Origin: Actinomycetes bacterium
Lineage (GTDB): Bacteria > Actinomycetota > Thermoleophilia > Solirubrobacterales > Solirubrobacteraceae
NCBI GenBank assembly: GCA_021792455.1
Contig: JAJYUP010000013.1
Coordinates: forward strand, 1-43,997
Length of the DNA: 43,997 bases
Direction of reading: 5' to 3'
Position 1 is the first letter of the stretch. Every line of letters starts with the position of its first letter. A model generated the notes under the pieces. It saw only the letters and a program-made list of their open reading frames with translations, was not told the origin of the DNA and did no database searches. Shown here piece after piece: positions 8,004-40,409 of the stretch. The position numbers were made by a program, and so were the translations under genes.

Positions 8004-8092
8004 AACGGCGCCGTGCGCGCGCGGAAGTGACTTCAGGCCTTGGCAAGGTGCCCGGCGCGAGGCCAACGGCGCCGTGCGCGCGCGGAAGTGAC
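8004..8092. repeat. Paired direct repeat in the panC/udg divergent spacer (28 bp, copies 61 bp apart)
   Basis: aacggcgccgtgcgcgcgcggaagtgac, perfect copies at 8004-8031 and 8065-8092. Confidence 0.92.
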
Positions 8093-8119
8093 CGCTTGCG
8101 GTCGATGTAGGATCCCTGC

Positions 8120-8881
8120 ATGGCGAGAGGCGAGCGCCCGCGGAGTGCGGAGCAGCGCCGTGAGGCGCTGAAGGCGCTGTATTCGCAGGTGAGCTCGTGC
8201 GTTCGATGCCCCGAGCTTGCCGCAACCCGGCGCAACGTCGTCTTCGGCTCGGGCGACGCGAACGCTGAGTTGATGTTCGTCGGCGAGGCGCCAGGCGCAC
8301 GGGAGGACGAGCAGGGCCTGCCGTTCGTCGGCCAGGCGGGCAAGCTGCTGGACAGGCTGCTCGCCGAGATCGGGCTCGCGCGCTCACAGGTGTTCGTCGC
8401 GAACACCTTGAAGTGCCGCCCGCCAAGCAATCGCGACCCTCTGCCCCTCGAGATCGAGCGCTGCCGCAGCTATCTGTACGAGCAGGTCGCTCTCGTCGAG
8501 CCGAAGGTGATATGCACGCTCGGCAACTTCGCGACGAAGCTGCTGAGGCAGGACGACACCGGCATAACGAGGCTGCACGGGCGGGCGGAGGTGATCGCGG
8601 TCGGGTGGCGGGTGGTGCGGCTGTACCCGATCTTCCATCCAGCGGCGGCGCTGTACACGCCGAGGATGCTGGAGACCCTCCGCGAAGACTTCCTGAAGCT
8701 GCCGGCCCTGCTTGCGATGCAGGCGCCAGAGCAGGCCGCCGAGCTGGGAGGCTCAGAAGAGCCCATGGACGGGATGAGCCGGCAGCAGGGGGGTGAAGAC
8801 TCGCCGCAGGCGCCACAGCAGGCGCAGCCCGGTGAGCGTGCGCTGCTCGGCAGCGGCGAGGCACAGCTCGGGCTCTTCTGA
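8120..8881 (+). CDS. Family 4 uracil-DNA glycosylase (Fe-S type)
   Basis: VFGSGDANAELMFVGEAPGAREDEQGLPFVGQAGKLLDRLL plus FVANTLKCRPPSNRDP, and Cys residues typical of UDG family 4. Confidence 0.92.
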   Translation: MARGERPRSAEQRREALKALYSQVSSCVRCPELAATRRNVVFGSGDANAELMFVGEAPGAREDEQGLPFVGQAGKLLDRLLAEIGLARSQVFVANTLKCRPPSNRDPLPLEIERCRSYLYEQVALVEPKVICTLGNFATKLLRQDDTGITRLHGRAEVIAVGWRVVRLYPIFHPAAALYTPRMLETLREDFLKLPALLAMQAPEQAAELGGSEEPMDGMSRQQGGEDSPQAPQQAQPGERALLGSGEAQLGLF

Positions 8882-8938
8882 GTGCAGCAGGCGCAGCAGA
8901 GAAGCGGTGCGCATGCTCGGCGGCACCTGCGGGCGGGC

Positions 8939-9039
8939 GCGGCAACCGCCACGCCGTGATGCCAGATCCGGTGAAGACATACCGGGCAGCAGCCGTTGAC
9001 GGGTGCGGCAACCGCCAAGCCGGAACGCAAGATCCGGTG
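8939..9039. repeat. Paired direct repeat between udg and tsaE (35 bp, 66 bp apart, about 5 mismatches)
   Basis: gcggcaaccgccacgccgtgatgccagatccggtg (8939-8973) and gcggcaaccgccaagccggaacgcaagatccggtg (9005-9039). Confidence 0.85.
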
Positions 9040-9116
9040 CGCGCCGGAGGGGCCGGATTAAAGGTCGGACTGCTGCCTGCCGATGAGATGAATGTCTCCA
9101 TCCTCCCCACACGTGA

Positions 9117-9146
9117 CGGCCGGCCCGCACGATCGCGGGCCGGCCG
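9117..9146. terminator. Candidate hairpin, 12-bp GC stem, upstream of tsaE
   Basis: cggccggcccgc-acgatc-gcgggccggccg; no T-tract, so function is unsure. Confidence 0.45.
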
Positions 9147-9249
9147 CTTCACTTGCCACGACCGCGACGGGCTGCGGTCCGGTGAGCTCGATGCCCGCGC
9201 GCTGTATCCAGCGCTCTCACGCTGCGCCTCGCTGGACTACAGTCATGTG

Positions 9250-9678
9250 GTGACTGTGCAAGCTCTGGAAACGGCGAATGAGAGCGAGACCGAGTCCGTC
9301 GGCGCGAAGCTCGCCCGCAGCCTCTGTCGAGGCGACGTGGTGCTCGTGAAGGGCGAGGTCGGCTCCGGCAAGACGACTTTCGTGCGCGGCGCGGCGAGAG
9401 CCCTTGGCGTGGAGGGGCCAGTCACCTCGCCGACGTTCAGTATCGCCCATCGCTACGAGGGTGCAGGCGTGACGGTCTGTCACCTCGATCTCTACAGGCT
9501 GGCCGATCTCGACGCCGAGGATCCAGGGCTTCTGGCCGACCACACAGGGCAGGAGGTGATCGCCTTCATCGAGTGGCCAGAGGCGGGTGAGCGGGAGCTG
9601 CACGAAGCGAGCACGGTCGTGACGCTGCGCCACGCAGGCGAGAACAGGCGTGTGATCGAGGTGTGCGGATGGCGGTGA
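9250..9678 (+). CDS. tsaE: tRNA threonylcarbamoyladenosine biosynthesis ATPase TsaE
   Basis: Walker A GEVGSGKTTFVRGAARALG and VTSPTFSIAHRYEG; GTG start inferred; followed by tsaB. Confidence 0.9.
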   Translation: MTVQALETANESETESVGAKLARSLCRGDVVLVKGEVGSGKTTFVRGAARALGVEGPVTSPTFSIAHRYEGAGVTVCHLDLYRLADLDAEDPGLLADHTGQEVIAFIEWPEAGERELHEASTVVTLRHAGENRRVIEVCGWR

Positions 9679-10580
9679 TCCTCGGCCTGGACACGGCGAC
9701 GAGCGCGACGGCGGCGGCGCTGCTGCTCGCCGACGGCTCCGTGAGCGAGATGCGAGACGACCCAGAGCAGGGCTCCCGCCCGAAGCACAGCACGCATCTG
9801 CTCGCCTTTGCGGAGCAGCTGCTGGCGCGGGCGCACTCGAGCTGGGAGGTCGTTCAGGGGATCGCGGTCGGTATCGGGCCAGGCTCTTTCACGGGTCTGC
9901 GGGTGGGGCTGGCGGTCGCCCGCGGCCTCGCGCAGTCCCTGCAGGTGCCCCTGACGGGGGTGCCGAGCACCGCTGCGCTGGCCGCAGGTGCGCTTTGGCG
10001 GGAGGAGATCTGGGCGCAGGCCGATCACAGTGAGAGGAGAGTGCTGTGCGTGCTGGACGCACGGCGGGGCGAGGGGTTCGCCGCCGCTTACGCGATCGGG
10101 CGGGAGGTGAGCCCGCGGCAGCTCGCTGCGCCGCGCGTGCTGCAGAGCGGTGAGCTCGCGCAGGTGGGCGAGGCTCTGCACCTGGATCTGCAGGAGGGCA
10201 GCTGGCTTGCGGTGGGCGATGGCGCGGTGCGCTTCGAGCGAGAGCTCTCCGGGGCGGCGGTGAGGGTGGCAGCCGCGGACTCAGACGCGCACAGGGTGAG
10301 CGCAGGGACGATCTGCAGGCTGTCCGTCCAGCTGAGCCCTGCTGCGAGAATCGAGGAGGTGCTGCCGATCTACTGCAGACAGCCGGATGCAAAGCCCGTT
10401 CGTCAGCCCCGCAGCCGCCGCGCAGGCAGCGAAGACGGGCATGCGCATCGCGGCGACGGGGCGCGGTCGCAGGCAGCGGCGATGGAAGCGAAGGTGGCAA
10501 TGGGGGACAGGGCGGCCAAAGCGGGAGCTGGACCCGTCGTCGCAGAAGCGGCCGGAGGGGAAAGGGCGGCCTTCGAATGA
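9669..10580 (+). CDS. tsaB: tRNA threonylcarbamoyladenosine biosynthesis protein TsaB, with a low-complexity C-terminal tail
   Basis: MAVILGLDTATSATAAALL and GIAVGIGPGSFTGLRVGLAVARGLAQ. Confidence 0.92.
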   Translation: MAVILGLDTATSATAAALLLADGSVSEMRDDPEQGSRPKHSTHLLAFAEQLLARAHSSWEVVQGIAVGIGPGSFTGLRVGLAVARGLAQSLQVPLTGVPSTAALAAGALWREEIWAQADHSERRVLCVLDARRGEGFAAAYAIGREVSPRQLAAPRVLQSGELAQVGEALHLDLQEGSWLAVGDGAVRFERELSGAAVRVAAADSDAHRVSAGTICRLSVQLSPAARIEEVLPIYCRQPDAKPVRQPRSRRAGSEDGHAHRGDGARSQAAAMEAKVAMGDRAAKAGAGPVVAEAAGGERAAFE

Positions 10581-11104
10581 GCAGGCAGCTGACCGCCCCC
10601 TCCACGATCGACGGCGGGAGCGTGCAGGTGCGCTCTCTGACCTACCCCGACCTGCCAGAGGTGATGTCGATCGAGCGCCGCGCATTTCCGACGCCATGGT
10701 CGCTTGCGATGTTCGTGCTCGAGCTCTCGAAGTCCTCAGGGATCTGTCTCGCGGCAGAGTCGGCTGGCCGGCTGGCCGGCTACCTGATCTGCTCCCGGTA
10801 TGAGACGGTCTGGCACGTGATGAACGTCGCAGTTGACGTCGGGCAGCAGGGCAGGGGCATCGGCTCCGCGCTGCTTGCGGCGCTCTACGAGCGGGTCGCC
10901 GATCCAGATGCCCGCTACACGCTCGAGGTGCGGCGCTCGAACGACGTCGCGATCCACCTCTACGAACGCGACGGCTTCAGGCCCGCGGGCGTTCGGCGGC
11001 GCTACTACCAGGACAACGGCGAGGATGCTCTGGTGATGTGGCGCACGCCTGACACGCTCGCAGGCGGCCTCGGGGACGTCCCAAATCCAGGCGCGAGCTG
11101 GTGA
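10577..11104 (+). CDS. rimI: Ribosomal-protein-alanine N-acetyltransferase (GNAT)
   Basis: VMSIERRAFPTPWSLAMF, QGRGIGSALLAAL, LEVRRSNDVAIHLYERDGF; t6A cluster context. Confidence 0.9.
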   Translation: MSRQLTAPSTIDGGSVQVRSLTYPDLPEVMSIERRAFPTPWSLAMFVLELSKSSGICLAAESAGRLAGYLICSRYETVWHVMNVAVDVGQQGRGIGSALLAALYERVADPDARYTLEVRRSNDVAIHLYERDGFRPAGVRRRYYQDNGEDALVMWRTPDTLAGGLGDVPNPGASW

Positions 11105-12207
11105 GCGCCCTCGACGGCTTCGGGAGCGTGGGCAGCGGCAGCGCACCGCCTGCGAGGCGGTCGGTGCGCTTCCGAGGGCAGGGCCTCGTGCTCGCGATCG
11201 AGACGAGCTGCGACGACACGTGCGCGTCGGTGGTGGACGGTGATGGCGTGATCCGCTCGAACGTGATCTCCTCCCAGCACGTCCACGACCGCTTCGGCGG
11301 CGTCGTGCCTGAGATCGCTGCGAGACATCATCTGCAGCTGATGAACGTGGTCGTCTCTGAGGCGCTGGCGGAGGCACGCACGAGCCTCGATGAGATCGAG
11401 CTGGTCGCGGTCACCCAGGGCCCCGGACTGATCGGCGCGCTGCTCGTCGGCCTCTGCGCCGCGAAGGCGATTGCCGCCGGCAGACGGGTGCCGCTGGCCC
11501 CGGTCGACCACCTCCAGGGCCACGTCTCCGCGAACTTCCTGAGCGAGTCCTTCGAGCCGCCGTTTCTGTGTCTCATCGCGAGTGGCGGACACACGCTGCT
11601 TGCGGAGGTTGAGGAGCACGATCGCTTCAACGTCGTCGGTCGCTGCATCGACGACGCCGCAGGCGAGGCGTTCGACAAGGGCGCAAGGATGCTGGGGCTC
11701 GGCTACCCAGGCGGCCCCGCCCTCGAGCGGCTTGCCGCCGAAGGTGATCCCTGCGCGTTCGAGTTTCCAGGCGCAAATGCGAAGGGCAGGGGACGGCGGG
11801 GCGGGCGCGGCAGAGCCTACGCGCAGGGCCTCGACTTCTCCTTCGCAGGCGTGAAGACGGCGCTGCTCTACAGGCTCCAGCAGATGAGTGAGGCCGACGC
11901 AGCTGCGCAGGCGGCGAACCTCGCCGCCTCCTACCAGCACGCGATCGTAGAGAGCCTCGCCGACAGGGCCGAACGAGCTCTCGAGCGTCTGAAAGTGGAC
12001 AGGCTCGCCCTCGGCGGCGGTGTTGCGGCAAACGGCGCGCTGCGCAGGCGGATGGAGCAGATAGGGGCTCGCCTGCACGTGCCGGCACGTGAGCTGTGCA
12101 CAGACAACGCGGCGATGATCGGCAGTGCCGCCCGCTTCCAGCGGGCGCTGCCGTACCCGAGGTACCTGGCGCTCGATGCCTATGCGACGGGGCAGCGAGC
12201 GCTGTGA
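11101..12207 (+). CDS. tsaD: tRNA N6-threonylcarbamoyladenosine transferase TsaD
   Basis: LAIETSCDDTCASVVDG, GGVVPEIAARHHLQ, FLCLIASGGHTLL, LALGGGVAANGALRRRM; GTG start. Confidence 0.96.
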   Translation: MSALDGFGSVGSGSAPPARRSVRFRGQGLVLAIETSCDDTCASVVDGDGVIRSNVISSQHVHDRFGGVVPEIAARHHLQLMNVVVSEALAEARTSLDEIELVAVTQGPGLIGALLVGLCAAKAIAAGRRVPLAPVDHLQGHVSANFLSESFEPPFLCLIASGGHTLLAEVEEHDRFNVVGRCIDDAAGEAFDKGARMLGLGYPGGPALERLAAEGDPCAFEFPGANAKGRGRRGGRGRAYAQGLDFSFAGVKTALLYRLQQMSEADAAAQAANLAASYQHAIVESLADRAERALERLKVDRLALGGGVAANGALRRRMEQIGARLHVPARELCTDNAAMIGSAARFQRALPYPRYLALDAYATGQRAL

Positions 12208-12303
12208 GATGGTGGCGCGGCGTTCGGAGCGGGACGTGGCTCGATCGGCAGAGTGGTGCGCCACGAGAGGGCGGTGATGCAGAGGGCGAGGTGGCGCCCT
12301 GAG

Positions 12304-12410
12304 GGGTGCAGCGCGGTGAGACGAAGGGTGGGCTCGGCGCGCGAGCCGAAGTGTCGGAGAGAACCGCAGACCGGGTGCAGCGCGGTGAGACGAAGGGTGG
12401 GCTCGGCGCG
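12304..12410. repeat. Perfect 38-bp paired direct repeat between tsaD and the glutaredoxin gene (69 bp apart)
   Basis: gggtgcagcgcggtgagacgaagggtgggctcggcgcg at 12304-12341 and 12373-12410. Confidence 0.95.
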
Positions 12411-12416
12411 GTGGCG

Positions 12417-12671
12417 ATGAGGGGGACGGTCACGATCTACGGTCGCCGCGGCTGCCATCTGTGCGAGGTGGCAAAGCAGGTGATCGAGGCGATGCTCGCC
12501 GATCTGCCGGGCTTCGAGGTGCTCGAGATCGACATCACCGAGCGTGACGCGCTGCATGCCGCCTACCTCGAGCGGATACCAGTCGTTGCCCTGAACGGCG
12601 TCGAGCTGTTCGAACACTTCGTCGATGAGCAGCGGCTGCGCGAGGCGCTGGAGGCGGCGGGTCCCGCCTGA
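12417..12671 (+). CDS. Glutaredoxin-like (DUF836-type) thioredoxin-fold protein
   Basis: MRGTVTIYGRRGCHLCEVAKQVIEAM (CHLC) and cis-Pro region RIPVVALNGVELFEHFVDE. Confidence 0.85.
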   Translation: MRGTVTIYGRRGCHLCEVAKQVIEAMLADLPGFEVLEIDITERDALHAAYLERIPVVALNGVELFEHFVDEQRLREALEAAGPA

Positions 12672-12787
12672 TCGCGATCTGAGCGACGCTGAGGGTGCAT
12701 CCGAGCTGCCCCTCCTCGCGCACGTGATCCTCCGCTCCGCTGATCGGGCTCTGCCGCTCGCGCGCCTGATCCACTAGAGTCAGGCCG

Positions 12788-13456
12788 ATGTCAGGCGAAC
12801 AGGCAGCGCGCGGTGTCGGCAGCCCAGGTGGAAACGGTGACGGTCGCCTCTCGCTCGGGGTGGCGGCACGGCTGTCGCGCTACCTCCAGGTGCTCACCCA
12901 GGCGCGCAAGATGGGCCGAGAGACGATCTCATCCCAGGAGCTCGCGGAGTACACCCACGTCAACCCGACCCAGATAAGGCGCGATCTCTCGGCCTTCGGC
13001 AAGTTCGGCAAGCGCGGGGTCGGCTACAGCGTCGAGTCGCTGATCGTCGAGATCCGAAGGATCCTGCGAACCGCAGGCCAGCACAACATCGCGCTGCTCG
13101 GCGCAGGGCATCTCGGCAACGCGATCGCCTCCTCGGACATCTTCGCCGACCATGGCTTCACCGTCGTCGCGATCTTCGACAGCGATCCGGCGAAGGTCGG
13201 CACCGATGTCGGGGGCAAGGTCGTGCGGCACATCGACGAGCTCGATCGCGTCGTGAAGGAGGAGGACATCGTCGTCGGGGTGCTCGCCGTCCCCGGCGGT
13301 GCCGCCCAGCAGCTCGCGGACGAGCTCGTGAGGGCCGGCGTGAAGATCATCTTCAACTACTCCGACGCGCTGCTGAGCGTGCCCCCAGAGGTGACGGTCC
13401 ACACCTCGAGCCCCGCCGTCGATCTGCTGTATGCGCTGTACTTCTACCTGGCCTGA
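12788..13456 (+). CDS. rex: Redox-sensing transcriptional repressor Rex
   Basis: SSQELAEYTHVNPTQIRRDLSAFGKFGKRGVGYSVESL and LLGAGHLGNAIASSDIFADHGF. Confidence 0.96.
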   Translation: MSGEQAARGVGSPGGNGDGRLSLGVAARLSRYLQVLTQARKMGRETISSQELAEYTHVNPTQIRRDLSAFGKFGKRGVGYSVESLIVEIRRILRTAGQHNIALLGAGHLGNAIASSDIFADHGFTVVAIFDSDPAKVGTDVGGKVVRHIDELDRVVKEEDIVVGVLAVPGGAAQQLADELVRAGVKIIFNYSDALLSVPPEVTVHTSSPAVDLLYALYFYLA

Positions 13457-13472
13457 GCGACCCACCTGAGCG

Positions 13473-13509
13473 AGCCGTCGCCTGCGCGCCCGCGAAGGGG
13501 GCGACGGCT
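13473..13509 (+). terminator. Candidate hairpin downstream of rex
   Basis: agccgtcgcc / ggcgacggct 10-bp perfect stem, 17-nt loop, just after the rex stop. Confidence 0.5.
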
Positions 13510-13535
13510 GGCAGCGCCGCGACCCTCCTAAGCTT

Positions 13536-14762
13536 GTGAGGCGCGCTCGAGACGGCGAGCGCGCCCGCCTGAAGCGACTCCACAGACACCGGACAGTGCA
13601 ATCAGACGCGAGAAACAGCCTCGACCTCGACCTCGCTGAGGAGCGCTTCCTCGCGGCCATCGATCACACCGTCGGCATCGAGGAGGAGTTTGCGATCCTC
13701 GACCAGACGAGCTTCGACCTCGTCCCCGGGTTCGAGCGGCTGCGCGAGGCGGCGGCGATTCGCGACAGCCTGCTCTGCGAAGGGATCACAGGCGAGCTGA
13801 TCTCCTCAGAGGTGGAGATCGTCTCGGGGCGCGGAGAGGATCTCGCAGATGCGATCGCGCGCCAGCGTGAGCGTCGTCGCCGGCTGTTCGCGCTCGCCGA
13901 GCAGGAGGGCTTCGTGCTTGGTGCGACAGGCACGCATCCATGGGCCGACTACCGAAAGCAGACGGTGATCGACACAGAGCACTACCGCCGCGTCGCCGAA
14001 GGTCTGCAGTACGTCGCTGCCCGCAACAACACCTTCAGCCTCCACGTCCACGTGGGCGTGAACAACCCTGACCGCGCGGTGAAGGTGTGCGACCGCCTGC
14101 GCCCTGTGCTGCCGCTTCTGCTGGCCCTCTCCGCAAGCTCGCCCTACATCGACGGCCGGGACTCCGGCCTGCACTCCGCGCGCACGCAGACGTTCACCCG
14201 CAGCTTCCCCCGCTGCGGCGTGCCTGACCCGTTCGGCTCCTGGGCGGCCTACCGACAGTACATAGACGTGCTGCGCAGGACGAGCTCGATCGTGGAGTTC
14301 ACCCAGGTTTGGTGGTCGATACGCCCACACTTCGCCTTCGGAACCGTCGAGGTTCGCATCTGCGACGCACAGATCTCCGGAGGCGAGTCGGAGGCGCTGA
14401 CGGCACTGATCGTAGCCTGCGTCGCCCAGGCGGCGCGAGACATCGATGAAGGCGTTCCGTTCGAGGATCCTCCCTCGCGCCTGATCGAGGAGAACATGTG
14501 GCGAGCGATCAGGTTCGGATTGGACGGCTCGATGATCGACTTCGCAGAGACGGAGGAGTACCCGTCCGCGGCGATCGCAGAGCGGCTCGCCGCCTGGACC
14601 GCGCCGCTGCGCGGGGAGCTCGGGATCGATGTGCTCTTCCCAGAGCGCAACGGCGCGCAGCGGCAGCGGTCGCAGATTGCCGCGGGCGTGCCGATGGAGG
14701 AGGTCTACGCGAGCGTCGTCGCAGAAACCAGGCAGACATATGCCCAGGAGGTGACTGTATGA
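13536..14762 (+). CDS. GCS2-family carboxylate-amine ligase (YbdK-like glutamate-cysteine ligase)
   Basis: TVGIEEEFAILDQTSFDLVPGF, NTFSLHVHVGVNNPDRAVKVCDRLRPVLPLLLALSASSPY, FGTVEVRICDAQ; true start may be downstream. Confidence 0.9.
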   Translation: MRRARDGERARLKRLHRHRTVQSDARNSLDLDLAEERFLAAIDHTVGIEEEFAILDQTSFDLVPGFERLREAAAIRDSLLCEGITGELISSEVEIVSGRGEDLADAIARQRERRRRLFALAEQEGFVLGATGTHPWADYRKQTVIDTEHYRRVAEGLQYVAARNNTFSLHVHVGVNNPDRAVKVCDRLRPVLPLLLALSASSPYIDGRDSGLHSARTQTFTRSFPRCGVPDPFGSWAAYRQYIDVLRRTSSIVEFTQVWWSIRPHFAFGTVEVRICDAQISGGESEALTALIVACVAQAARDIDEGVPFEDPPSRLIEENMWRAIRFGLDGSMIDFAETEEYPSAAIAERLAAWTAPLRGELGIDVLFPERNGAQRQRSQIAAGVPMEEVYASVVAETRQTYAQEVTV

Positions 14763-14833
14763 GCGAGAGCGATCCGAGGCGCGTCGACTGGACGGCGCGT
14801 CTGCGCGCGACGGTTTCGAGGGCTGAGCGGTGA
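14759..14833 (+). CDS. Putative 24-aa microprotein (MSESDPRRVDWTARLRATVSRAER)
   Basis: ATG overlaps the upstream stop (ATGA, 14759-14762) and its TGA overlaps the next GTG start (GTGA, 14830-14833). Confidence 0.45.
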   Translation: MSESDPRRVDWTARLRATVSRAER

Positions 14834-15366
14834 GCGCCGCCCCTGCACGAGAAGAGGAGCAGCTGAAGGCCTACGAAGAGCAGCTGAGCCGGATGCAGAG
14901 CATCGACATCGCCCTGCAGGCGGCGGCGTCGCTGCTGAACATCGGCGGTATGCGCCTCGGCCTGTCGGCGGGCGCCTCTGAGCGGCGCGACCTCGAGCAG
15001 GTGCGCGACGCGATCGACGGTGTGAGGGCCCTGATGCCGATCATCGAGCGACGCCTGCCTGCCGAGGAGACAGGAAGGCTGCGAGACGCGCTCTCACAGC
15101 TGCAGATGGCCTACGCCCAGCTCGTCCGCGAGACGGCGACGGCGACGGCGGGCGCCGGCGCGCACGACGCGCGAGGGCCGAGTGAGCCTGCGTCAGGCGG
15201 CGCCCAGCAGCCGGGCGCAGGCGGGACTGGCGGCGCCGGCGGTGGACAGGCGGGCGGCGCGGCTGGCCCGTCTCAGCCGCCTTCTCCGAGCGCAGATGAG
15301 AAGGGCCGGCGAGGCCCAGGGCCAGCTGAGGCGAGCGGCAGGCTGTGGGTGCCGGGACGCCGGTAG
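14830..15366 (+). CDS. Hypothetical helical protein with Gly/Pro/Ala-rich tail
   Basis: Coupled GTG start; helical N-terminal part (LKAYEEQLSRMQSIDIALQAAASLLNIGGMRLG). Confidence 0.6.
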   Translation: MSAAPAREEEQLKAYEEQLSRMQSIDIALQAAASLLNIGGMRLGLSAGASERRDLEQVRDAIDGVRALMPIIERRLPAEETGRLRDALSQLQMAYAQLVRETATATAGAGAHDARGPSEPASGGAQQPGAGGTGGAGGGQAGGAAGPSQPPSPSADEKGRRGPGPAEASGRLWVPGRR

Positions 15367-15598
15367 CGGCGAGCGGCGCGCGAAGCCCTCTCGCGCAGGA
15401 GCGGAGCAGCCGCGCGCTGCGCAGATAGGCCCGATCAGATTCGATCCGCCTTCTGCCGGGGAGCGCGATACACTGCGCGCGCTCTTTGCGCTGGAAGAGC
15501 GCCTGCGGGCCGTCTCGAGCACCGAGCTCGGCGCGCGAAGTGCGCGCGACTTCTTCGCGCGGCACGAAACCAGACCGCGGAGGATTATCTTTGAGTAG
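15182..15598 (+). CDS. Possible small ORF overlapping the preceding gene and hppA start
   Basis: Open frame with protein-like C-terminus ([48 protein letters not shown]); start unclear. Confidence 0.3.
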
Positions 15599-17693: not shown

Positions 17694-17706
17694 GCTGACC
17701 GCACGC

Positions 17707-17745
17707 GCTCGCGATCTCGCTGAAGCGCACCGCGTGATCGCGAGC
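17707..17745. terminator. Candidate hairpin after hppA
   Basis: gctcgcgatc / gatcgcgagc perfect 10-bp stem with 19-nt loop; no T-tract. Confidence 0.4.
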
Positions 17746-17885
17746 ATGCGTGTGGATCGCCTGCGCCGCCGAGGTGATGCTCCGATCAGATCAGCGGCCG
17801 CGGGCCCGCCGGCGTGCCTTGTCGACCATGCTCGGAGGTGGCGAGCGGGATACCCTCAGATCTGTATGGGAGCGCTGAGAGCGCG

Positions 17886-18083
17886 ATGAACGGCAGGCAG
17901 ATCCACCGCAGGGCGTCGCTTGTGCTCGCGGCGGTGATGCTCGCAGTCGGCGTCGTCCTTCTGCTCCAGAGCGCGTCCTCGTCCCAGGGGGGAGTGCTCG
18001 GTCGCGTCGTTCTCGGTGTCATGTTTCTGCTCGTCGGGGTTGGGCGGATCTATCTGGAGATGCGCCGGGGTCGAAGGAGGTGA
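17886..18083 (+). CDS. Small two-TM membrane protein
   Basis: MNGRQIHRRASLVLAAVMLAVGVVLLLQ...VVLGVMFLLVGVGRIYLEMRRGRRR; ATGA-type overlap with next gene. Confidence 0.65.
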   Translation: MNGRQIHRRASLVLAAVMLAVGVVLLLQSASSSQGGVLGRVVLGVMFLLVGVGRIYLEMRRGRRR

Positions 18084-30054: not shown

Positions 30055-30071
30055 CGCGTCGCGGGTGACGT

Positions 30072-30304: not shown

Positions 30305-30338
30305 TCGCTCGTGGGTGTCGGCTTCCACCCACGAGCGA
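30305..30338 (+). promoter_or_regulatory. 13-bp-stem leader hairpin immediately upstream of the amt ribosome-binding site
   Basis: tcgctcgtgggtg-tcggcttc-cacccacgagcga, then ggagg and ATG at 30349. Confidence 0.6.
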
Positions 30339-30348
30339 ATGGAGGCAC

Positions 30349-31752: not shown

Positions 31753-31775
31753 GACGCAGGCTCACAGGACCATCG

Positions 31776-31807
31776 ACGACGGCCAGGCATCTGCCTGGCC
31801 GTCGTTT
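31776..31807 (+). terminator. Intrinsic terminator of amt
   Basis: acgacggccaggca-tc-tgcctggccgtcgt followed by ttcgtt. Confidence 0.75.
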
Positions 31808-31829
31808 CGTTGGAGGTCGATGGAGGGGT

Positions 31830-31902
31830 GACCGCGGCGCATGCGCCGCGGTCCAGGGTCGGCGCATGCGCCGACCCACAGGGGCGCGCATGCGCGCCCC
31901 TG
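31830..31902. repeat. Three consecutive perfect palindromes sharing the core GCGCATGCGC or CGCATGCG
   Basis: gaccgcggcgcatgcgccgcggtc (31830-31853), gggtcggcgcatgcgccgaccc (31856-31877), caggggcgcgcatgcgcgcccctg (31879-31902). Confidence 0.97.
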
Positions 31903-31937
31903 CACAGATGAGAGGGGAGGGGGAGCGGGAGCTGCTC

Positions 31938-32147
31938 CTAGCCGAAGTGGCCCCAGTGGGCGGCGACGATGAGAAGCACCCCGCCCGCCGCGAGCAGGGC
32001 TCCCGCCAGCATCGTCCTGCCCGGAGCGAATCTCAGCGGCGGCAGGTGGGCGAGTACGACCCAGACGCCGGCTATCGCGATCAGCAGGAAGCCGATCTCC
32101 GCGAGATGCCTGCCGGTTTCGACCGTCATCGCAAACAGAAAGCTCAT
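31938..32147 (-). CDS. Small two-TM membrane protein
   Basis: [69 protein letters not shown]; start overlaps the msrA stop. Confidence 0.7.
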
Positions 32148-32878
32148 CCAGTCCCCACTTCCAGTGTCGAGGTCGGTGCCTGCGTGCTCGTGGTCGGGGA
32201 AGCGGGATCGCCCCCATCCCCGTCTCTCATGCGCTGTGTGTCCGTGCCGATCGGGCAGGCGATGCCCGTGCCCCCGAGTCCGCAGTACCCAGAGGGATTC
32301 TTCGCGAGGTACTGCTGGTGGTGAGCCTCGGCATAGTAGAAGTGCGAAGCATGCGCGATATCGGTTGTGATATCGCCGAACCGCCTGGATCGCAGAGCAT
32401 CTCCATAGAGGCGTCTCGATGCTGCCGCCGCGTCGCGCTGGGCCTGTCCATTCGTGAAGATCGCGGAGCGATACTGCGTGCCGACGTCGTTTCCCTGACG
32501 CATCCCCTGAGTCGGGTCGTGTCCCTCCCAGAATGTCTTCAGGAGCCGCTCGTAGGGGATCTGATCGGGCCTGAAGACGACTAGGACCGCCTCAGCATGC
32601 CCGGTCATTCCTGAGCAGACCTCCTCATAAGTCGGGTTCGGGGTGTATCCGCCGCTGTAGCCGACCGCTGTGACGTGCACGCCTGGGAGTCGCCAGAACA
32701 GCCTCTCCGCCCCCCAGAAGCAGCCAAGCGCAAAGATCGCCGTCTCGCAGCCCTCTGGGAAGGGTGGTTGCAGCGGCGTTGCAAGAACGTGATGGATGCC
32801 GTCTGAGAGCACTGGGTCCGCCCGCCCCTCGAGGGCCTCACGCTCGTTGACGAGCCGCGTCTTTGAGGAGCCGAGCAT
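32144..32878 (-). CDS. msrA: Peptide-methionine (S)-S-oxide reductase
   Basis: [52 protein letters not shown]. Confidence 0.96.
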
Positions 32879-33086
32879 CAGAGAGCCAAGTGTACATGCG
32901 CACGAGGTCGTCCACTGCTCAGCGCCTGGACGCCTGCTGTCCGACCGACTCCCCGGCGCGCGGCGCGCTCTTCGCGGTCGGGGTTTCGTTTCTCGGGCAG
33001 CGGGCAACACTGACTGCAGGAGCATCCCTCCCTCATTCCCTCCCCCGATCGGCCCGCTGCCCCCGGCGGGCCGATCCGTCTGGGCA

Positions 33087-33174
33087 CGCGAGGAGCCTGA
33101 CCTCGCGGAGGGTGCGGTGCGGCAGCGGTCGAGATCCTTGGGGGCCTCATCTCGCGAAGAGCCTGATCTCGCGG
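33087..33174. repeat. Paired direct repeat between msrA and the MFS gene (22 bp, 66 bp apart, 2 mismatches)
   Basis: cgcgaggagcctgacctcgcgg (33087-33108) and cgcgaagagcctgatctcgcgg (33153-33174). Confidence 0.88.
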
Positions 33175-33243
33175 CCAGCTTCGCATCGCGGATCGGCATC
33201 CAGCGGAGGCTGTCCTCCTCCGGGGGCTGCTAGAACGCGGGCG

Positions 33244-34575
33244 GTGAGCCCCCGCATCACGAAGCGGCTGACGTTCATCATGGCGCTTGGCTGTGGAGTG
33301 TCCGTCGGCAACCTCTACTACGCCCAGCCGCTCCTGAACGTCATCGCCCGCAGCCTTCACGTCGGGTACGGACAGGCGGGCCTCCTCGTCACGCTCAGCC
33401 AGATCGGCTACGCCCTCGGCCTCGTTTTGCTCGTGCCTCTCGGCGATCTCATCCAGAGGCGTCGACTCGTCGTCAGGACCCTTCTGCTCACGGCGATCTC
33501 GCTCGCTGCCGCGGGCCTCGCGCCGTCGCTGAACGCGCTCGACATCGCGATCTTCGTCGTCGGTGCGAGCACAGTCATCCCTCAGATCCTCGTGCCCTTT
33601 GCCGCGGAGCTCGCCCCAGCTGAGCAGCGGGGCAGGGTCGTTGGGGCGGTGATGAGCGGCCTGCTCGTAGGCGTGCTGCTCGCGCGCACGGTCGCTGGCG
33701 TGCTCGCCCAGCTCGGCAGCTGGCGGATCGCGTTTCTCGCAGCCGCCGGCGCGATGATCGCGCTCGCAGCGCTGCTGCGCAGGGAACTGCCTGAGGTGCC
33801 TGTGGCAGTGAAGATCAGCTATCGGGCACTGCTGCGCTCGGCTGGGTCGATCGCGCTCGAGGACTCGCTGATCAGGTGGCGCTCGCTCTTCGGCGCTGTC
33901 GGGTTCGCCTGCTTCAGCGTGCTGTGGACCTCGATCTCGTTCCTGCTCTCAGGCGCCCCATACCACCTCGGCCCGGCGCTCATCGGACTGTTCGGGCTGC
34001 TTGGCGCCGCTGGCGCGATGATGGCGAACGTCGCCGGCAGAATCGCCGACGCCGGGTTCACGCGCGCAGCGACCGGGGTCCTCTTCGCGCTGCTCAGCGC
34101 CTCATTCGGGCTGCTGATCGCCGGCAGGTCAGACCTGCTGCCCCTCATCGGCGGGATCCTGCTGCTCGATCTCTCCGTCCAGGGCATCCACATCCTCAAC
34201 CAGGCGACGATCTACGCCAGGCACCCAGAGGCGAGGGGCAGGGTGACGACGATCTACATGACGAGCTACTTCGCAGGTGGGGCGGTCGGCTCCGCGGTCG
34301 CATCCGCGCTGTATGGGAGCGAAGGGTGGCGGGGGGTCTGCCTGCTCGGCGCAGGCCTTGGGCTGCTTGGGCTGCTGTCATGGCTGCTCCAGGGCCTCGC
34401 GCGCGGACCTCGGCAGCGGCAGGGGACGGGGCTGCGATCCGGCGGGCAGGAGGCGTTCTCGCCACGCAGTCGGCGGCTCACAGCTCGCACTCGGCGAGGC
34501 ACCGCCGATTCCGAGCTTGCGAGCGCCGCCGATCAGGGGGAGGGCTCGCGCAGCGCGCCTGTGTCAGGGTCGTAG
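33244..34575 (+). CDS. MFS transporter
   Basis: MALGCGVSVGNLYYAQPLLNVIARSLHVGYGQAGLLVTLSQIGYALGLVLLVPLGDLIQRRRLV; GTG start. Confidence 0.9.
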   Translation: MSPRITKRLTFIMALGCGVSVGNLYYAQPLLNVIARSLHVGYGQAGLLVTLSQIGYALGLVLLVPLGDLIQRRRLVVRTLLLTAISLAAAGLAPSLNALDIAIFVVGASTVIPQILVPFAAELAPAEQRGRVVGAVMSGLLVGVLLARTVAGVLAQLGSWRIAFLAAAGAMIALAALLRRELPEVPVAVKISYRALLRSAGSIALEDSLIRWRSLFGAVGFACFSVLWTSISFLLSGAPYHLGPALIGLFGLLGAAGAMMANVAGRIADAGFTRAATGVLFALLSASFGLLIAGRSDLLPLIGGILLLDLSVQGIHILNQATIYARHPEARGRVTTIYMTSYFAGGAVGSAVASALYGSEGWRGVCLLGAGLGLLGLLSWLLQGLARGPRQRQGTGLRSGGQEAFSPRSRRLTARTRRGTADSELASAADQGEGSRSAPVSGS

Positions 34576-35024
34576 ATGAGGCCCCTCACCGTCTCGCGAA
34601 AGGGCAGCTCTCGGCTTGCGCGCAGCCGGGCGACGCTCGCCGCCAAGGTCGCCTCCAGGTCGTCGAAGGCGCCGAGCCGCCAGGAGGGGAGGACCCCACT
34701 CTCGGCGAGGGCGGCCTTGAAGTCGTCCTCTGAGGCGTTGAGCAGGCCGCACTGCTCATGCATGATCACGAGCACCTCCTGCGTTCCCAGCAGCCGCTGG
34801 GAGACGCTGAGGGACCGGATCGCATCATCGGTCGCAAGAGCTCCTGCGTTTCTGAGGATGTGCGCCTCGCCAACCCGAAGCCCAAGCATCCTCAGCGGGT
34901 CGAGGCGTGCGTCCATGCACGTCAGAACCGCGAGCTTGCGCTGTGGCGTCGCGGTGAGCTCAGGCGTTGCGAGCTGCTCGGAGCGCTGCGGTGCGGAGGC
35001 GAGGATCTCGTCTGTCGTCGTCAT
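34533..35024 (-). CDS. Beta-carbonic anhydrase-like protein
   Basis: AVLTCMDARLDPLRMLGLRVGEAHILRNAGALATDDAIRSL...VLVIMHEQCGL (CxDxR and HxxCG zinc ligands). Confidence 0.9.
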   Translation of the reverse strand: MTTTDEILASAPQRSEQLATPELTATPQRKLAVLTCMDARLDPLRMLGLRVGEAHILRNAGALATDDAIRSLSVSQRLLGTQEVLVIMHEQCGLLNASEDDFKAALAESGVLPSWRLGAFDDLEATLAASVARLRASRELPFRETVRGLIYDPDTGALREPSP

Positions 35025-35125
35025 CGGCCTTCGTCCCTTCTCGGCGTGATCAGCCCCAATCCTCCGTCGCCCTCGTCGGAGGTGATCGTAGCTGTGGCAG
35101 CTGCGCACGTGCGTTGTGCTCCACA

Positions 35126-35215
35126 GCCCACCTCGCTCCAGGGCTCTGCGCGGCTGCTTGGCGCGGATCGGGCGGCGGTGACCCATCGCCCACCTCGCTG
35201 TCGGGCTCTACGCGG
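35126..35215. repeat. Paired direct repeat upstream of the carbonic anhydrase (28 bp, 62 bp apart)
   Basis: gcccacctcgctccagggctctgcgcgg (35126-35153) and gcccacctcgctgtcgggctctacgcgg (35188-35215). Confidence 0.88.
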
Positions 35216-35289
35216 TTTGAGACGGCGCTTGCGAGCCCCCCTGCATTCGCTGCCCCGCTGCCGTCGCTTGGGTGCGCTGCCGTCCGCGC

Positions 35290-35398
35290 AGCGTGCCGGA
35301 GTAGGCGCGGTCGGGCACCTCGATCGCCAGAGCATCTACGCATCGAGGCCGGCGGGCGACAGCGTGCCGGAGTATGCGCGGTCCAGCACCTCGATCGC
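35290..35398. repeat. Paired direct repeat: glcF 3' end and a downstream copy (38 bp, 71 bp apart, 3 mismatches)
   Basis: agcgtgccggagtaggcgcggtcgggcacctcgatcgc (35290-35327) and agcgtgccggagtatgcgcggtccagcacctcgatcgc (35361-35398). Confidence 0.92.
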
Positions 35399-36658
35399 GT
35401 GCAGCACAGGCGTGGTGTCCCCAAGTGCGCGCAGATGCGCCTCTATCTGCAGCATGCAGCCGACGTTCGAGGTCGCGATGAGGTCGGGAGAGGCTTCGAG
35501 CAGTCGCTTCGCCTTGCGACGGCCAAGCTGCGCGGCGATGCGAGGCTTGTTGAGGTTGTAGGTCCCCGCCGAGCCGCAGCACAGCTCCCACTCTGCCGGC
35601 TGAACCAGCGTCACATTGCCGATCGCCCGCAGCAGTGCGCGGGGCTGCACGCGCAGCGATTGGGCGTGAGCGAGGTGGCAGGCGTCGTGGCAGGCGATTC
35701 GCAGCGGCGTTGACGCCGACGGCGGAGCGGCGGTGAGGCCGATCTCCGTGAGCAGTGCAGAGATGTCGCGCACCTTGCCTGCAAAGCTGCGCGCACGCTC
35801 CTCGTCGGGGTCGCCGGCGAAGAGCAGGGGGTACTCCTTCATCCCTGAGCTGCAGCCAGCGGTCGTGCTGACGATCGCGTCGAGGTCTTCGTCGAACGCG
35901 TCGAGGTTGCGCCGTGCGCGAACGCGCGCCTGCCGCAGAGCGCCGGCGTGCAGGCTGAGCGCCCCGCAGCAGCCTGCCTCGCTTGGCGTGATCGCCTGAA
36001 TTCCGTTGCGCGCGAGCACGCGCTCGGCTGCGCGGTTGATCTGCGGTGCGAGCACCTGCTGTGCGCAGCCCGCAAGCAGGCCGACACGCCCCCTGCCTGC
36101 CGGGGGCGGGCCATCCCCCTGCTGCGTTGTGGGGCTGCTGCCCTTCACGGGCTGGCGGGTGCTCTGCGCGGCCGTGGCGAGGCGCTCGAGAGCCGCTGCG
36201 ATGCTCGCCTGCAGCTCGTCGCCGAGAAGGGGACGCAGCGGACGCAGCAGTCGGGTGACCCTCAGCGCGAGGCGCAGCCTCGAGGGGGACTGGACGGTGC
36301 CAAGCAGCAGAGAGCGGAGGAGGCGCTCTGGGAACGGGCGCCTGCACTCGCTGTCGATATAGGCCCGGAACGGTGTGATCAGATCCCGGTAGGCGACTCC
36401 TGAGGGGCAGGCGGTCTCGCACGCCAGGCAGGAGAGGCAGTTGTCGATGTATGGTCGTGCGCTGCGAAGGTCGATCGCACCTTCGAGGGCCTCCTTCATC
36501 AGGACGATCCGCCCTCTCGGAGAGTCCATCTCCTCGCCGAGCGTGAGGTATGTAGGGCAGCTCGACAGGCAGAACCCGCAGTGAACGCAGGAGCTGATCG
36601 CCTGCGCCGCCCCTGAGCCCGCCACGCCGAGCTTTTCTGCTTCGATCGAGTGGCGCAT
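35336..36658 (-). CDS. glcF: Glycolate oxidase iron-sulfur subunit
   Basis: CVHCGFCLSSCPTYLTLGEEMDSPRGRIVLMKEALEG, CLSCLACETACPSGV, CCGALSLHAG, CCGSAGTYN. Confidence 0.94.
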   Translation of the reverse strand: MRHSIEAEKLGVAGSGAAQAISSCVHCGFCLSSCPTYLTLGEEMDSPRGRIVLMKEALEGAIDLRSARPYIDNCLSCLACETACPSGVAYRDLITPFRAYIDSECRRPFPERLLRSLLLGTVQSPSRLRLALRVTRLLRPLRPLLGDELQASIAAALERLATAAQSTRQPVKGSSPTTQQGDGPPPAGRGRVGLLAGCAQQVLAPQINRAAERVLARNGIQAITPSEAGCCGALSLHAGALRQARVRARRNLDAFDEDLDAIVSTTAGCSSGMKEYPLLFAGDPDEERARSFAGKVRDISALLTEIGLTAAPPSASTPLRIACHDACHLAHAQSLRVQPRALLRAIGNVTLVQPAEWELCCGSAGTYNLNKPRIAAQLGRRKAKRLLEASPDLIATSNVGCMLQIEAHLRALGDTTPVLHAIEVLDRAYSGTLSPAGLDA

Positions 36659-36659
36659 A

Positions 36660-39527
36660 TCAGCGGAGAGGCAGGAACCTCTCCACAGGGTCGAGGGCAC
36701 GACGGATCCGCTCCCCGAAGGCACCGCCTCCTGCCGCTGGGCAGGAGCCGCTCGCCCCGCTGCCGATCCCAGCGGCCGTGCCGCTCGCCGTCTCGCCGCC
36801 CGCTCGCGCCGCGGACCCGCCAAGGAGCGGCGGAATCGCAGCGCGACTGCCTCCTGAGGCCCCTCTCAGCACGATCGCGCGCAGGCCGATGGTGCGGAGG
36901 AGGAGATCGAGCTCGCTGAGCGGCCGGCTCTGTGGCCAGCCGATGATCGCCGCTTTGCCGCCAAGGCTCAACCGCAGCTTCGCGCCCCTTCCCGCAAGGG
37001 CCTGTTCCAAGGCGGGCGTGGAGCCGAGGTGCATCGCCACCCTGACGAGCAGCTCGCTCTCATCGACCCAGGAGAAGCGCGCTGCATCGCTCCACAGCGC
37101 CGCGTCCTCCGCATCCTCTGCGCACCTGGAGGGCATGTTCAGGAGCGCCGCGCAGCGCGCCGCGCGAGCGCGAAGGTCGGCGCGCCTGCCGCCGAGACGC
37201 ACCAACAGCCTGCCCTCCGGCTCGACGTCGAGCGCGAGGATCTCGACGGGCGCGCGCCCAAGGCAGGCAAGCGCGGTGAGCGCCTGTGCTCGATCATCCG
37301 GGTGCGCGAGGATCGTGATCGCAGCCTCTGGGCGAGGCAGGACCTTCAGGGACAGCCGCGTGATCACGCCAAGGCGCCCGATCGACCCGACGAGCAGCTT
37401 CGGCAGGTCGAACCCCGCCGCGTTCTTGACGACCCTGCCGCCGCCCCGCACGACTGCGCCCGTGCCGTCGATCAGCTCGATCCCGAGGACGAAGTCACGC
37501 ACGCCACCGTGAAGATGGGCGCTGCACCCTGATACGCCTGCAGCGACTGCCCCGCCAAGCGTCGCGCCGGCCGCCGCGAGCGGCGGATCGAATGGGAGCC
37601 ACTGGCCGTGCTCGGCGAGCAGCGCATCGACCTCAGCGACTTGCGTGCCGGCGAGCGCCGTCAGCGTCAGCTCAGCAGGGTCGTAGTCGAGGATCCCCGA
37701 CAGGTGCGAGATGTCGAGCAGCTGGGCGCCCCCCGCTGCGCTGCAGGAGAGCGCGGGCTTGCTGCGCCCGCCGACGGGCAGCAGCTTCGGCAGGCTCCTC
37801 ACGGCGTCCTGAAGGCGCTCGATCTCTTTGGCGACCCCTGCCGAGCGGCGCGTCGCGGCGGTGCCTGCTGAGCGGCCATCGAGTCGCGGTGGCGTGGAGG
37901 CACCGTCGTCTCGCCCGCCTCGCTTCCGCGCTGCATCTGGCGCCCGCAGCCGCTGTCGCCGCTCATCCTCAGGCGGCCAGAGCCCCGTTCTCCGCTCATC
38001 CTCAGGCGGCGAGAGCCCCATTCGCCGCTCATCCTCAGGCGGCCAGGGGAGCATCTTGCCGCGGTTTGCGATCTGCGCGGGGTCGATCGAGGCGCGCAGC
38101 CGCTGCATCACCTCGAGATCCTGCTCGCTGAACATCAGCTGCATGTGCTGCAGCTTCTCTACCCCGACGCCATGCTCGCCGGTGATCGACCCGCCGAGGG
38201 AGACGCACATCTGCAGGATCTCACCGGCGAGGCGCTCCGCCGCCTGAAGCGCCCCCTGGCGTCGTGCGTCGAAGAGGATGATCGGGTGCAGGTTGCCATC
38301 GCCGGCGTGGAACACGTTTGCGATCTGCATGCCGCTGTCCCTGCTCATCCTCTCGATCTCCGCGAGGGCCTCGCCAAGGCGCGTGCGCGGGACGACGCCA
38401 TCCTGGACGATGTAGTCGGGGGCGAGCCAGCCGACGGCAGAGAAGGCGCTCTTGCGGCCCCTCCAGATGAGCGACTGCTCGTCAGGCTGCCTGCTCCTCA
38501 GCACCTCCGCGGCGCCGGAGGTCCTCAGCAGGTCCGTCAGCTGTGATGCATCGGCGCGCACGACGTCGTGCTCGCCGGCAAGCTCGACGATCAGCAGCGC
38601 CGCCGCATCGGGATAGCCCGGTTTCACCGCCGCCTCCGCCGCTTCGATCGCGAGCGCATCCATCATCTCGATCGCGACGGGCAGGATTCCCGCCTCGATT
38701 ATCTGCGCCACCGCCTCACCCGCCGCCTCGAGCGAACCGTAGGCCGCGAGAGATGTCTCTGTGAGCTCCGGCAGAGGGATGAGGCCGACCGTCATCTCGA
38801 GCGCGATGCCGAACAGCCCCTCGCTGCCGCAGAACATCCCGACCCAGTCTGGTCCCGCGGTCTCCGTCGAGTCGTCCCCGAGCTCGACGACGACGCCATC
38901 TGGCAGGACGGCTTCGATGCCGAGCACGTGATTTGCCGTCATCCCGTGCTTGAGGCAGTGAGCTCCGCCGGAGTTGAACGCGATGTTGCCGCCGATCGTG
39001 CACACCGACTCGCTCGACGGGTCAGGGGCATAGGCGAGGCCGTGCCCAGCTGCTGCCCTGCTGAGGGCGAGGTTCACCACTCCTGACTGTACGCGGGCAG
39101 TTCTCGACTCAGGGTCTATGTCCAGGATCTCGTTCAGCCTGTTCAGGGCGATCACGATCCCGCCCTCGACGGGCAGCGAGCCGCCAGACAGCGACGTGCC
39201 GCTGCCGCGGGCGACGAACGGAATCGCGTGCTCGCTGCAGGCGGACACGGCCGCGACCACCTCGTCCCTCGTCTCCGGGATCACGACCGCGAGCGGCAGT
39301 TGCCGAAAGGCCGTGAGCGCGTCGGAGGCGAAGACCGCAAGCTCGGCGGGCTCCGTGAGCAGACGTGAACGAAATCCGATCTCGGCAAGGGAGCGGAGGA
39401 TCTCCTGTCCGCTGCGCAGGCTCTCCGCGCCCGAGCTGGAGGCGCCACGCCTGGTGCGAGGCCGCCATCGCCTGTTCCGCCCGACCTCCCGCTTCCCGCG
39501 AGCGATCCGGCGCGCGCTTCGCGGCAC
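36660..39527 (-). CDS. Glycolate oxidase GlcD-GlcE fusion (two FAD-binding units in one ORF)
   Basis: N-terminal GlcD ([65 protein letters not shown]), then a repeat linker, then GlcE-like ([49 protein letters not shown]); GTG start inferred. Confidence 0.9.
37959..38042 (-). repeat. 33-bp x3 repeat encoding PPEDERR(M/T/Q)xLx in the GlcD-GlcE linker
   Basis: ccgctcatcctcaggcgg at 37959, 37992 and 38025, exactly 33 bp apart. Confidence 0.95.
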
Positions 39528-39569
39528 CTGCTCCGCCTCGGCAGCCGTGTCTGACTCCAGCCCGCGCAC

Positions 39570-40292
39570 ATGTGGCACTATCGCAGGGTGGCAGCTGAGA
39601 CGCAACATAGACGCAAGAGGGACACAAGCGCGCCGAGGGCGAATGCGAGCGCACGTGCTCACGCCTACACGAAGGAGCGGATCCTCGACGGCAGCCTCGG
39701 CGCTGGAGAGGTGATCAGCGAGGGCGAGATCGCGGAGGCGATCGGCACGAGCCGCACGCCTGTGCGTGAGGCGTTTCTTCGGCTGGAGTGCGAAGGCCTG
39801 CTTCGCCTCTACCCGAAGCGCGGAGCGCTCGTCGTCCCGATCTCCCACAGTGAGGTGGAGAGCGTGATGGAGACCCGTCTGCTGATCGAGCGGTTTGCCC
39901 TCAGCAAGGTGATCGCGCTTGGCATCGATCTCGCGGCGCCCCTCGCGCAGGTGATCGCCCGCCAGCGGGAGCTGAGAGGCGGCCGCGATCGTCGCGAGTT
40001 CGTCGAGGCAGATCGCCAGATGCACCGGCTGATCGTCGCGGCGACGGGCAACGAGATCATCCTGCAGCTGCACGACTCGATGCGGGATCGGCAGAGCCGC
40101 ATAGGGCTGATCGCGCTCGCGAGGCAGGATCGCCGTGTCGATGAGATCATCGAAGAACATGCAGCGATCGCCGCGGCGCTCGGAGCTGCAGAAGAGCAGA
40201 GGGCGCTCGCCCTTCTCGACCGGCACCTCCATGCAACTCTGATGCTGCTGCGCGGGCCCGCCTACCTGCGAGACTTCCGCATCGAGGGCTGA
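39570..40292 (+). CDS. GntR/FCD family regulator, divergent from the glycolate oxidase genes
   Basis: [47 protein letters not shown] plus an FCD-like C-terminus. Confidence 0.92.
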
Positions 40293-40332
40293 CGGCAGAC
40301 CGTCGCATCGCCGCCGACGCGAGTCTCGCGAC

Positions 40333-40409
40333 CTCTTGCGCGGGCGGGCGGGACGCCACGACCGCACCGCCGCGTTGGAACCCCTGCCACGAGCTCTTGC
40401 GCGGGCGGG
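40333..40409. repeat. Paired direct repeat between the GntR gene and the VOC gene (16 bp, 61 bp apart)
   Basis: ctcttgcgcgggcggg at 40333-40348 and 40394-40409. Confidence 0.75.

What the first reader, a model, noticed from the sequence alone, without database searches (positions are those of the whole stretch)
8004..40409. Recurring architecture: private paired direct repeats with a ~61-71 bp period in many intergenic spacers
Seven junctions carry a direct repeat of 16-38 bp whose two copies start 61, 66, 69, 66, 62, 71 and 61 bp apart (8004/8065, 8939/9005, 12304/12373, 33087/33153, 35126/35188, 35290/35361, 40333/40394). The tRNA-Gln spacer adds a degenerate pair 68 bp apart (21632/21700). 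Repeat sequence differs completely from locus to locus, but spacing and position (in spacers or at gene edges) are conserved. The DNA between the copies is not itself repeated, so these are not simple tandem duplications. Conserved spacing without conserved sequence does not fit REP/BIME, MITE, CRISPR or ordinary VNTRs. It could reflect a local copying mechanism, a spacing-dependent DNA-binding or looping protein, or paired RNA hairpins.
Basis: partly seen in the sequence, partly recalled or inferred. Interest (0 to 1): 0.85.

Follow-up and report, generated by a model that had tools for sequence, protein, structure and literature searches.

The report
Scars of measured short DNA insertions
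In this soil bacterium, dozens of gaps between genes hold a short stretch of new DNA (about 33-36 letters) between two copies of the neighbouring sequence (about 28 or 36 letters), which is the footprint expected if CRISPR-type machinery had pasted fragments outside its normal arrays.

Summary
All seven window pairs are there. In 1.15 Mb of the same genome I find 55 non-coding spaced direct-repeat pairs; 42 have an offset of 57-80 bp, with sharp peaks at 60/61 and 71. Shuffled spacers give none. Copies end abruptly; the DNA between them (S) has no second copy in the assembly. Comparison with congeners gives the polarity. At the ilvD/hydrolase junction, seven congeners carry one copy and the two genes overlap by 11 bp; here the sequence is R(36)-S(35)-R(36), and each gene ends in its own copy. 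So these are insertions of about 33-36 bp of new DNA with duplication of a 28- or 36-bp target, not binding sites, hairpins, VNTRs or diverged tandem duplications. The known enzyme with this geometry is the CRISPR adaptation integrase, Cas1-Cas2; congeners' type I-G arrays have it (36-bp repeats, 34-38-bp spacers). Against it: no cas1 in this 83%-complete assembly, no type I-E Cas2 in 61 genomes, and no source found for any S. I read them as decaying scars of off-array, Cas1-Cas2-like integration: insertion shown, enzyme inferred. Staggered-break repair with filler is the main rival. The tRNA-Gln pair is a 23-bp tandem array and does not belong.

The parts
8004..8031 (.). R copy 1 (28 bp) of pair d=61, upstream of a uracil-DNA-glycosylase-family gene
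   Evidence: perfect copy of 8065-8092
8032..8064 (.). S, 33-bp unrepeated insert
   Evidence: no second copy in own assembly; a 22-bp core has no match in viral contigs
8065..8092 (.). R copy 2 (28 bp)
   Evidence: own interval from the conserved upstream block to the gene is 41-52 bp longer than in two relatives
8934..8973 (.). R copy 1 of pair d=66, uracil-DNA-glycosylase/tsaE junction; weak, possibly a diverged tandem duplication
   Evidence: 76% over 62 nt
9000..9039 (.). R copy 2 of pair d=66
12304..12341 (.). R copy 1 (38 bp) of pair d=69, before a glutaredoxin-like gene
   Evidence: perfect copy
12342..12372 (.). S, 31 bp
   Evidence: no second copy in own assembly; a 22-bp core has no match in viral contigs
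12373..12410 (.). R copy 2 (38 bp)
33087..33108 (.). R copy 1 of pair d=66, msrA/MFS spacer
33153..33174 (.). R copy 2 of pair d=66
35126..35153 (.). R copy 1 of pair d=62
35188..35215 (.). R copy 2 of pair d=62
35289..35327 (.). R, downstream copy of pair d=71 (relative to the minus-strand Fe-S/CCG gene)
   Evidence: carries a Leu-to-Pro change relative to the in-gene copy
35328..35359 (.). S, 32 bp, contains the present stop codon of the Fe-S/CCG gene
35360..35398 (.). R, copy inside the 3' end of the Fe-S/CCG gene (encodes AIEVLDRAYSGTL; the VLDRAY stretch is conserved in its closest homologue)
40329..40348 (.). R copy 1 of pair d=61
40390..40409 (.). R copy 2 of pair d=61

Best explanation
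Each pair is the scar of one insertion. A staggered cut about 28 or about 36 bp wide was opened in the chromosome, a DNA piece of about 33-36 bp was joined in, and gap filling duplicated the target, turning R into R-S-R. The sizes come in two classes: about 28+32/33 (offset 60/61) and about 36+36 (offset 68-76, mode 71). I think the most likely agent is a CRISPR adaptation integrase (Cas1-Cas2 type, one or two systems) acting outside its arrays, either in the past of this lineage or encoded in the missing 17% of the assembly. The scars persisted where they did no harm (gene 3' ends and spacers) and then decayed. Shown: the geometry and its statistics, the sharp edges, that R-S-R derives from a single R (one clear empty site, one supporting junction), and that S has no second copy. 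Inferred: that one class of enzyme measures both lengths, that it is Cas1-Cas2, and that S came from foreign DNA.
For: Offset peaks 60/61 and 71 genome-wide. Edges fall to background identity at once. High-identity class-1 loci: R 26-29 bp in 10 of 12, S 31-35 bp in 10 of 12, insert 60-62 bp in all 12. Class-2 mode is R 35 / S 36. Empty site: seven congeners have ilvD and the convergent hydrolase overlapping by 11 bp in one copy of the sequence; own genome has R1 ending ilvD and R2 ending the hydrolase. mltG-aroE: usually 14-47 nt between mltG stop and aroE core in relatives against 180 here, and R contains the ATGA stop-start overlap. S has no second copy in the 3.15 Mb assembly. Congeners' type I-G loci (Cas1g, Cas2g) carry 36-bp repeats with 34-38-bp spacers, period 70-74. 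Off-array spacer integration on Cas1-Cas2 overexpression is reported (Nivala et al. 2018, as cited in PMC11788318), and apparently nonspecific in vitro integration with a type I-G Cas4/1 is noted in PMC10504553. R-S-R loci do not form regular arrays of 3 or more.
Against: No cas1 family match in this genome (83% complete) and in only 3 of 24 genomes of the genus; no type I-E Cas2 in 61 genomes; congeners' CRISPR repeat absent here. One cas1-positive congener (G014) shows no scars, but only 9.8 kb of its non-coding DNA was available. No S matches phages, plasmids or, for four tested, viral contigs. No edge motif. A few loci have long R and short S while keeping the same offset (e.g. 47/21 at 68, 41/21 at 62), so offset is tighter than R or S. 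The lineage also has many ordinary tandem duplications that Cas1-Cas2 would not explain. Class-2 R and S boundaries depend on alignment settings.
Confidence: 0.5

Rival explanations
1. Double-strand-break repair: two opposite nicks about 28-36 bp apart give long overhangs that are filled in, and end joining captures a short filler fragment; the plentiful plain tandem duplications are the same process without filler.
For: Same lineage has an excess of tandem duplications (132 non-coding arrays in 1.15 Mb; 64 against 6 per 100 kb non-coding in G009). Some loci have intermediate S (5-22 bp). No enzyme-specific motif.
Against: Filler of one size (S mostly 29-38) and a quantised offset are not expected. 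Unit lengths of two-copy tandem duplications differ from R lengths (median 28 against 33, KS P 0.014). G021 has even more tandem arrays but no spaced pair in 9 kb non-coding (low power).
Confidence: 0.2
2. An undescribed integrase or mobile-element-like activity, not Cas1, that inserts measured 33-36-bp pieces with long target duplications.
For: Ruler-like sizes with no cas1 in the assembly; no shared S sequence.
Against: No candidate gene identified; the geometry is already that of Cas1-Cas2.
Confidence: 0.17
3. Diverged tandem duplications in which only part of the unit stayed alike.
For: 8934/9000 is 76% alike over 62 of 66 bp; a few others are near-complete duplications (offset 68 with 63 alike).
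Against: Flank identity outside R is at the 0.30 background from the second base on, and S resembles neither flank more than shuffles in most loci. Perfect R beside unrelated S cannot be divergence.
Confidence: 0.05
4. Functional paired sites: a spacing-dependent DNA-binding protein, or paired RNA hairpins/terminators.
For: Conserved spacing, spacer location; one S (L065) is a perfect 12-bp terminator-like hairpin.
Against: No shared sequence, S not enriched in hairpins (mean z about 0), copies decay to about 80% and below, single-copy state in congeners.
Confidence: 0.04
5. Assembly artefact of k-mer graphs (offsets near 61 and 71).
For: Offsets resemble commonly used k values (my own knowledge); the genome is a fragmented metagenome assembly.
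Against: Many copies differ by 10-20% and the two copies serve different genes (L040, L050); an artefact would give identical copies.
Confidence: 0.02

Closest known systems
Off-array (non-canonical) spacer integration by Cas1-Cas2 (Nivala, Shipman and Church 2018; paper not held, cited in PMC11788318)
   Same: a single repeat-spacer-repeat unit made from a non-CRISPR target by insertion with target duplication; E. coli type I-E sizes 28+33 (my own knowledge) match class 1
   Different: here natural, about 40 in a third of a genome, of all ages, in two size classes, and no cas1 found in the assembly
Type I-G CRISPR arrays of the same genus (G014, G018)
   Same: 36-bp repeat, 34-38-bp spacer, period 70-74, matching class 2
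   Different: those are true arrays with one shared repeat beside cas genes; here every repeat is private and there are only two copies
Filler-bearing duplications from staggered-break repair (end joining)
   Same: duplicated flanks with new DNA between
   Different: narrow sizes here; usually variable
VNTR/tandem duplications
   Same: direct repeats in spacers, also abundant in this genome
   Different: no intervening unrelated DNA, broad period distribution

Membership tests
CRISPR array | three or more copies of one repeat separated by unique spacers | tested here: not met
   no spaced pair chains into 3 regular copies; repeats private to each locus
CRISPR array | cas genes in the genome | tested here: not met
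   no PF01867 match in 3.15 Mb, 83% complete
CRISPR array | repeat and spacer sizes of CRISPR kind | tested here: met
   about 28/32-33 and 35-36/36
Off-array Cas1-Cas2 integration scar | single-copy target becomes R-S-R | tested here: met
   ilvD/hydrolase empty site in seven congeners; tested at one locus, supported at a second
Off-array Cas1-Cas2 integration scar | insert and duplication have the fixed sizes of an adaptation complex | tested here: met
   congener type I-G arrays; class-2 edges less certain
Off-array Cas1-Cas2 integration scar | adaptation genes present in the host lineage | tested here: inconclusive
   absent in the own assembly, present in 3 of 24 genomes of the genus; no type I-E Cas2 in 61 genomes
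Off-array Cas1-Cas2 integration scar | insert derived from a traceable DNA source (phage, plasmid, self) | tested here: inconclusive
   no source found
Tandem duplication / VNTR | whole unit repeated head to tail | tested here: not met
   sharp edges, unrelated S
REP/BIME, MITE | shared sequence family across loci | tested here: not met
   R and S private; S matches only itself at full length

The most novel reading that the evidence does not exclude
A lineage of soil Solirubrobacterales has been peppered with size-measured 33-36-bp insertions with 28- or 36-bp target duplications, by an integrase that is not a CRISPR Cas1, or by a CRISPR adaptation complex that runs largely outside arrays, so that spacers and gene ends have been remodelled by on the order of a hundred events per genome.
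Probability: 0.25. Interest if true: 0.85.

Novelty: new variant of a known kind. Interest (0 to 1): 0.7.

Why it matters
Off-array spacer integration is known mainly from overexpression in the laboratory, as far as I could find. If natural genomes carry large numbers of its scars, CRISPR adaptation (or a lookalike) is a real mutagen: it adds 60-76 bp at a time, pulls overlapping genes apart, and could seed new arrays or control elements. The scars would also be a record of the sizes made by a lost integrase, and a simple test (the offset histogram of spaced repeats) would find them in any genome.

Tried and rejected
S as a copy of local or own-genome DNA: not found. S as hairpin or terminator: not enriched, although one S is a perfect hairpin. 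Palindromes at the R/S junctions noticed by eye in the window: S against the reverse complement of R was no better than shuffles. Copy-over of R downstream with S ancestral: conflicts with the overlapping gene ends in congeners; an apparently coding S at L121 turned out to lie outside the real reading frame. The stop codon inside S at window 35336 by itself leans towards S ancestral at that locus and is not resolved. Sequence preference at edges: none seen. The two offset classes as one helical turn apart in a single enzyme: possible but not needed, because class-1 S (about 33) and class-2 S (about 36) differ. Phage, plasmid and viral matches of S: none. Lenient gapped alignment over-extends class-2 R in this G+C-rich DNA, and a first version of it aligned S to itself (discarded), so class-2 sizes rest on ungapped alignments.
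Full report
Observation. The tRNA-Gln pair is part of a 23-bp tandem array. The window is a whole contig of a 3.15 Mb fragmented genome in 242 contigs, 83% complete; protein relatives place it with Solirubrobacterales metagenome assemblies.

Genome-wide test. I fetched stretches of the same genome, 1.15 Mb with the window, and called genes with a simple codon-usage caller. Among non-coding spaced pairs (score 16 or more, unrelated DNA between copies) 42 of 55 have offsets of 57-80 bp, 11 less and 2 more, with 13 at 60/61 and 10 at 71. The count of 55 includes the window pair at 12304, which my caller placed inside a gene and which I added by hand because its conserved domain begins at residue 41. 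Shuffled spacers give no pairs at all. Spaced pairs in genes are almost all at multiples of three and spread widely. In 400 kb of congener G009 only 4 non-coding spaced pairs occur, two of them in the range and both with short R; another 41 kb of non-coding DNA of other relatives has none in the range against about 8 expected at the own rate.

Anatomy. Outside R, in-register identity drops at once to the 0.30 background. High-identity loci of the first class have R of 26-29 bp and S of 31-35 bp in 10 of 12, and an insert (R+S) of 60-62 bp in all 12. In the second class the commonest form is R 35, S 36, offset 71, with a spread of 68-76; class-2 edges are less certain, because lenient gapped alignment lengthens R. 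R identity runs from 100% down to about 80%, so the events probably have different ages. R copies contain a gene 3' end 17 times and a gene start 3 times, as expected if insertions that leave the protein intact survive.

Polarity. At L040 the dehydratase gene ilvD ends in R1 and a convergent alpha/beta hydrolase gene ends in R2, and hydrolase homologues align to the last residues. In seven congeners the two genes overlap by 11 bp in a single copy of this sequence; in L210 the hydrolase end reads ttcctcagcgagtga, as in R here, and L223 differs from it by one base. So R was single and became R-S-R with S new. At mltG-aroE, relatives mostly have 14-47 nt between the mltG stop and the aroE core against 180 here, and R carries the ATGA stop-start overlap. 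A similar split of a TGATG overlap is seen at L136 11469/11531, for which no useful homologues were found. For the window pair 8004/8065 the interval from a conserved upstream block to the gene is 212 bp here against 171 and 160 in two relatives, in the right direction but not decisive.

What S is. No S has a second copy in the own assembly. As a group they match no phage or plasmid record, and the cores of four young ones match no viral contig. They are not hairpin-rich. Edges show no motif.

Mechanism. Insertion of a measured fragment with duplication of a 28- or 36-bp target is the chemistry of Cas1-Cas2. In this genus, G014 and G018 have cas1 (adaptation genes of G018 typed as I-G) beside arrays with 36-bp repeats and 34-38-bp spacers, period 70-74, which is the class-2 geometry. 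The 28/33 geometry of class 1 is that of type I-E (my own knowledge); no type I-E Cas2 was found in 61 genomes. Cas1-Cas2 overexpression is reported to cause integration outside arrays (Nivala et al. 2018, cited in PMC11788318; the paper itself is not held), Sulfolobus Cas1 is proposed to need a partner to avoid it (PMC9456107), and nonspecific integration is suggested for a type I-G Cas4/1 in vitro (PMC10504553). The own assembly shows no cas1 and no array of the congeners' repeat; at 83% completeness that lowers but does not exclude the reading. Steps shown: single R to R-S-R, new S, narrow sizes. Steps inferred: the enzyme, the foreign origin of S, and that one or two systems made the two classes.

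Rivals. End joining of staggered breaks with filler explains new DNA between duplicated flanks and fits the many plain tandem duplications of this lineage, but not the narrow sizes, and tandem unit lengths differ from R lengths. Diverged tandem duplication, binding sites, paired hairpins and assembly artefact are each contradicted by a test above.

Verdict. A real, surprising insertion process that is rich in this lineage and rare or absent in the sampled relatives, best read as off-array CRISPR-type integration with moderate confidence. About 115 such loci would be expected in the whole assembly by simple scaling of 42 in 1.15 Mb.

Noticed in passing
own genome, 1.15 Mb held; G021 loci L258-L287: Strong excess of short tandem duplications (period mostly 15-30) in spacers of this genome (64 per 100 kb non-coding) and of G021 (144), against 6-10 in G009 and G014.
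   Followed up: partly
L139, L141 (G018, G014): Type I-G CRISPR locus with a Cas4-Cas1 fusion (L139) and 36-bp repeats GTCACCGGAGACGNANGTCTCCGGCTCCGTTGAAGC in both; cas1 in only 3 of 24 genomes of the genus.
   Followed up: partly
L207 (G010), ilvD/hydrolase junction: This congener shows its own duplications of gene-end sequence at the same junction (86-bp gap).
   Followed up: no
L065 4779-4814: One S is almost entirely a perfect 12-bp stem with TTCG loop, like a terminator, right after a gene end.
   Followed up: no
window 7950-7990: Conserved non-coding block (CTCGGTCCAGTTCC...GGGATACCGGTCGCGA) upstream of the uracil-DNA-glycosylase-family gene in several congeners; promoter-like, not identified.
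   Followed up: no
window 316-2250 and 2702-4603: Two long ORFs with repeated (L)YW(A/S)(D/N) units, like LDL-receptor-type beta-propeller repeats (from reading the repeat units only).
   Followed up: no
L073: Record titled Chlamydiae bacterium carries a close relative of this Solirubrobacterales protein (71%), so the title is probably wrong or the bin mixed.
   Followed up: no
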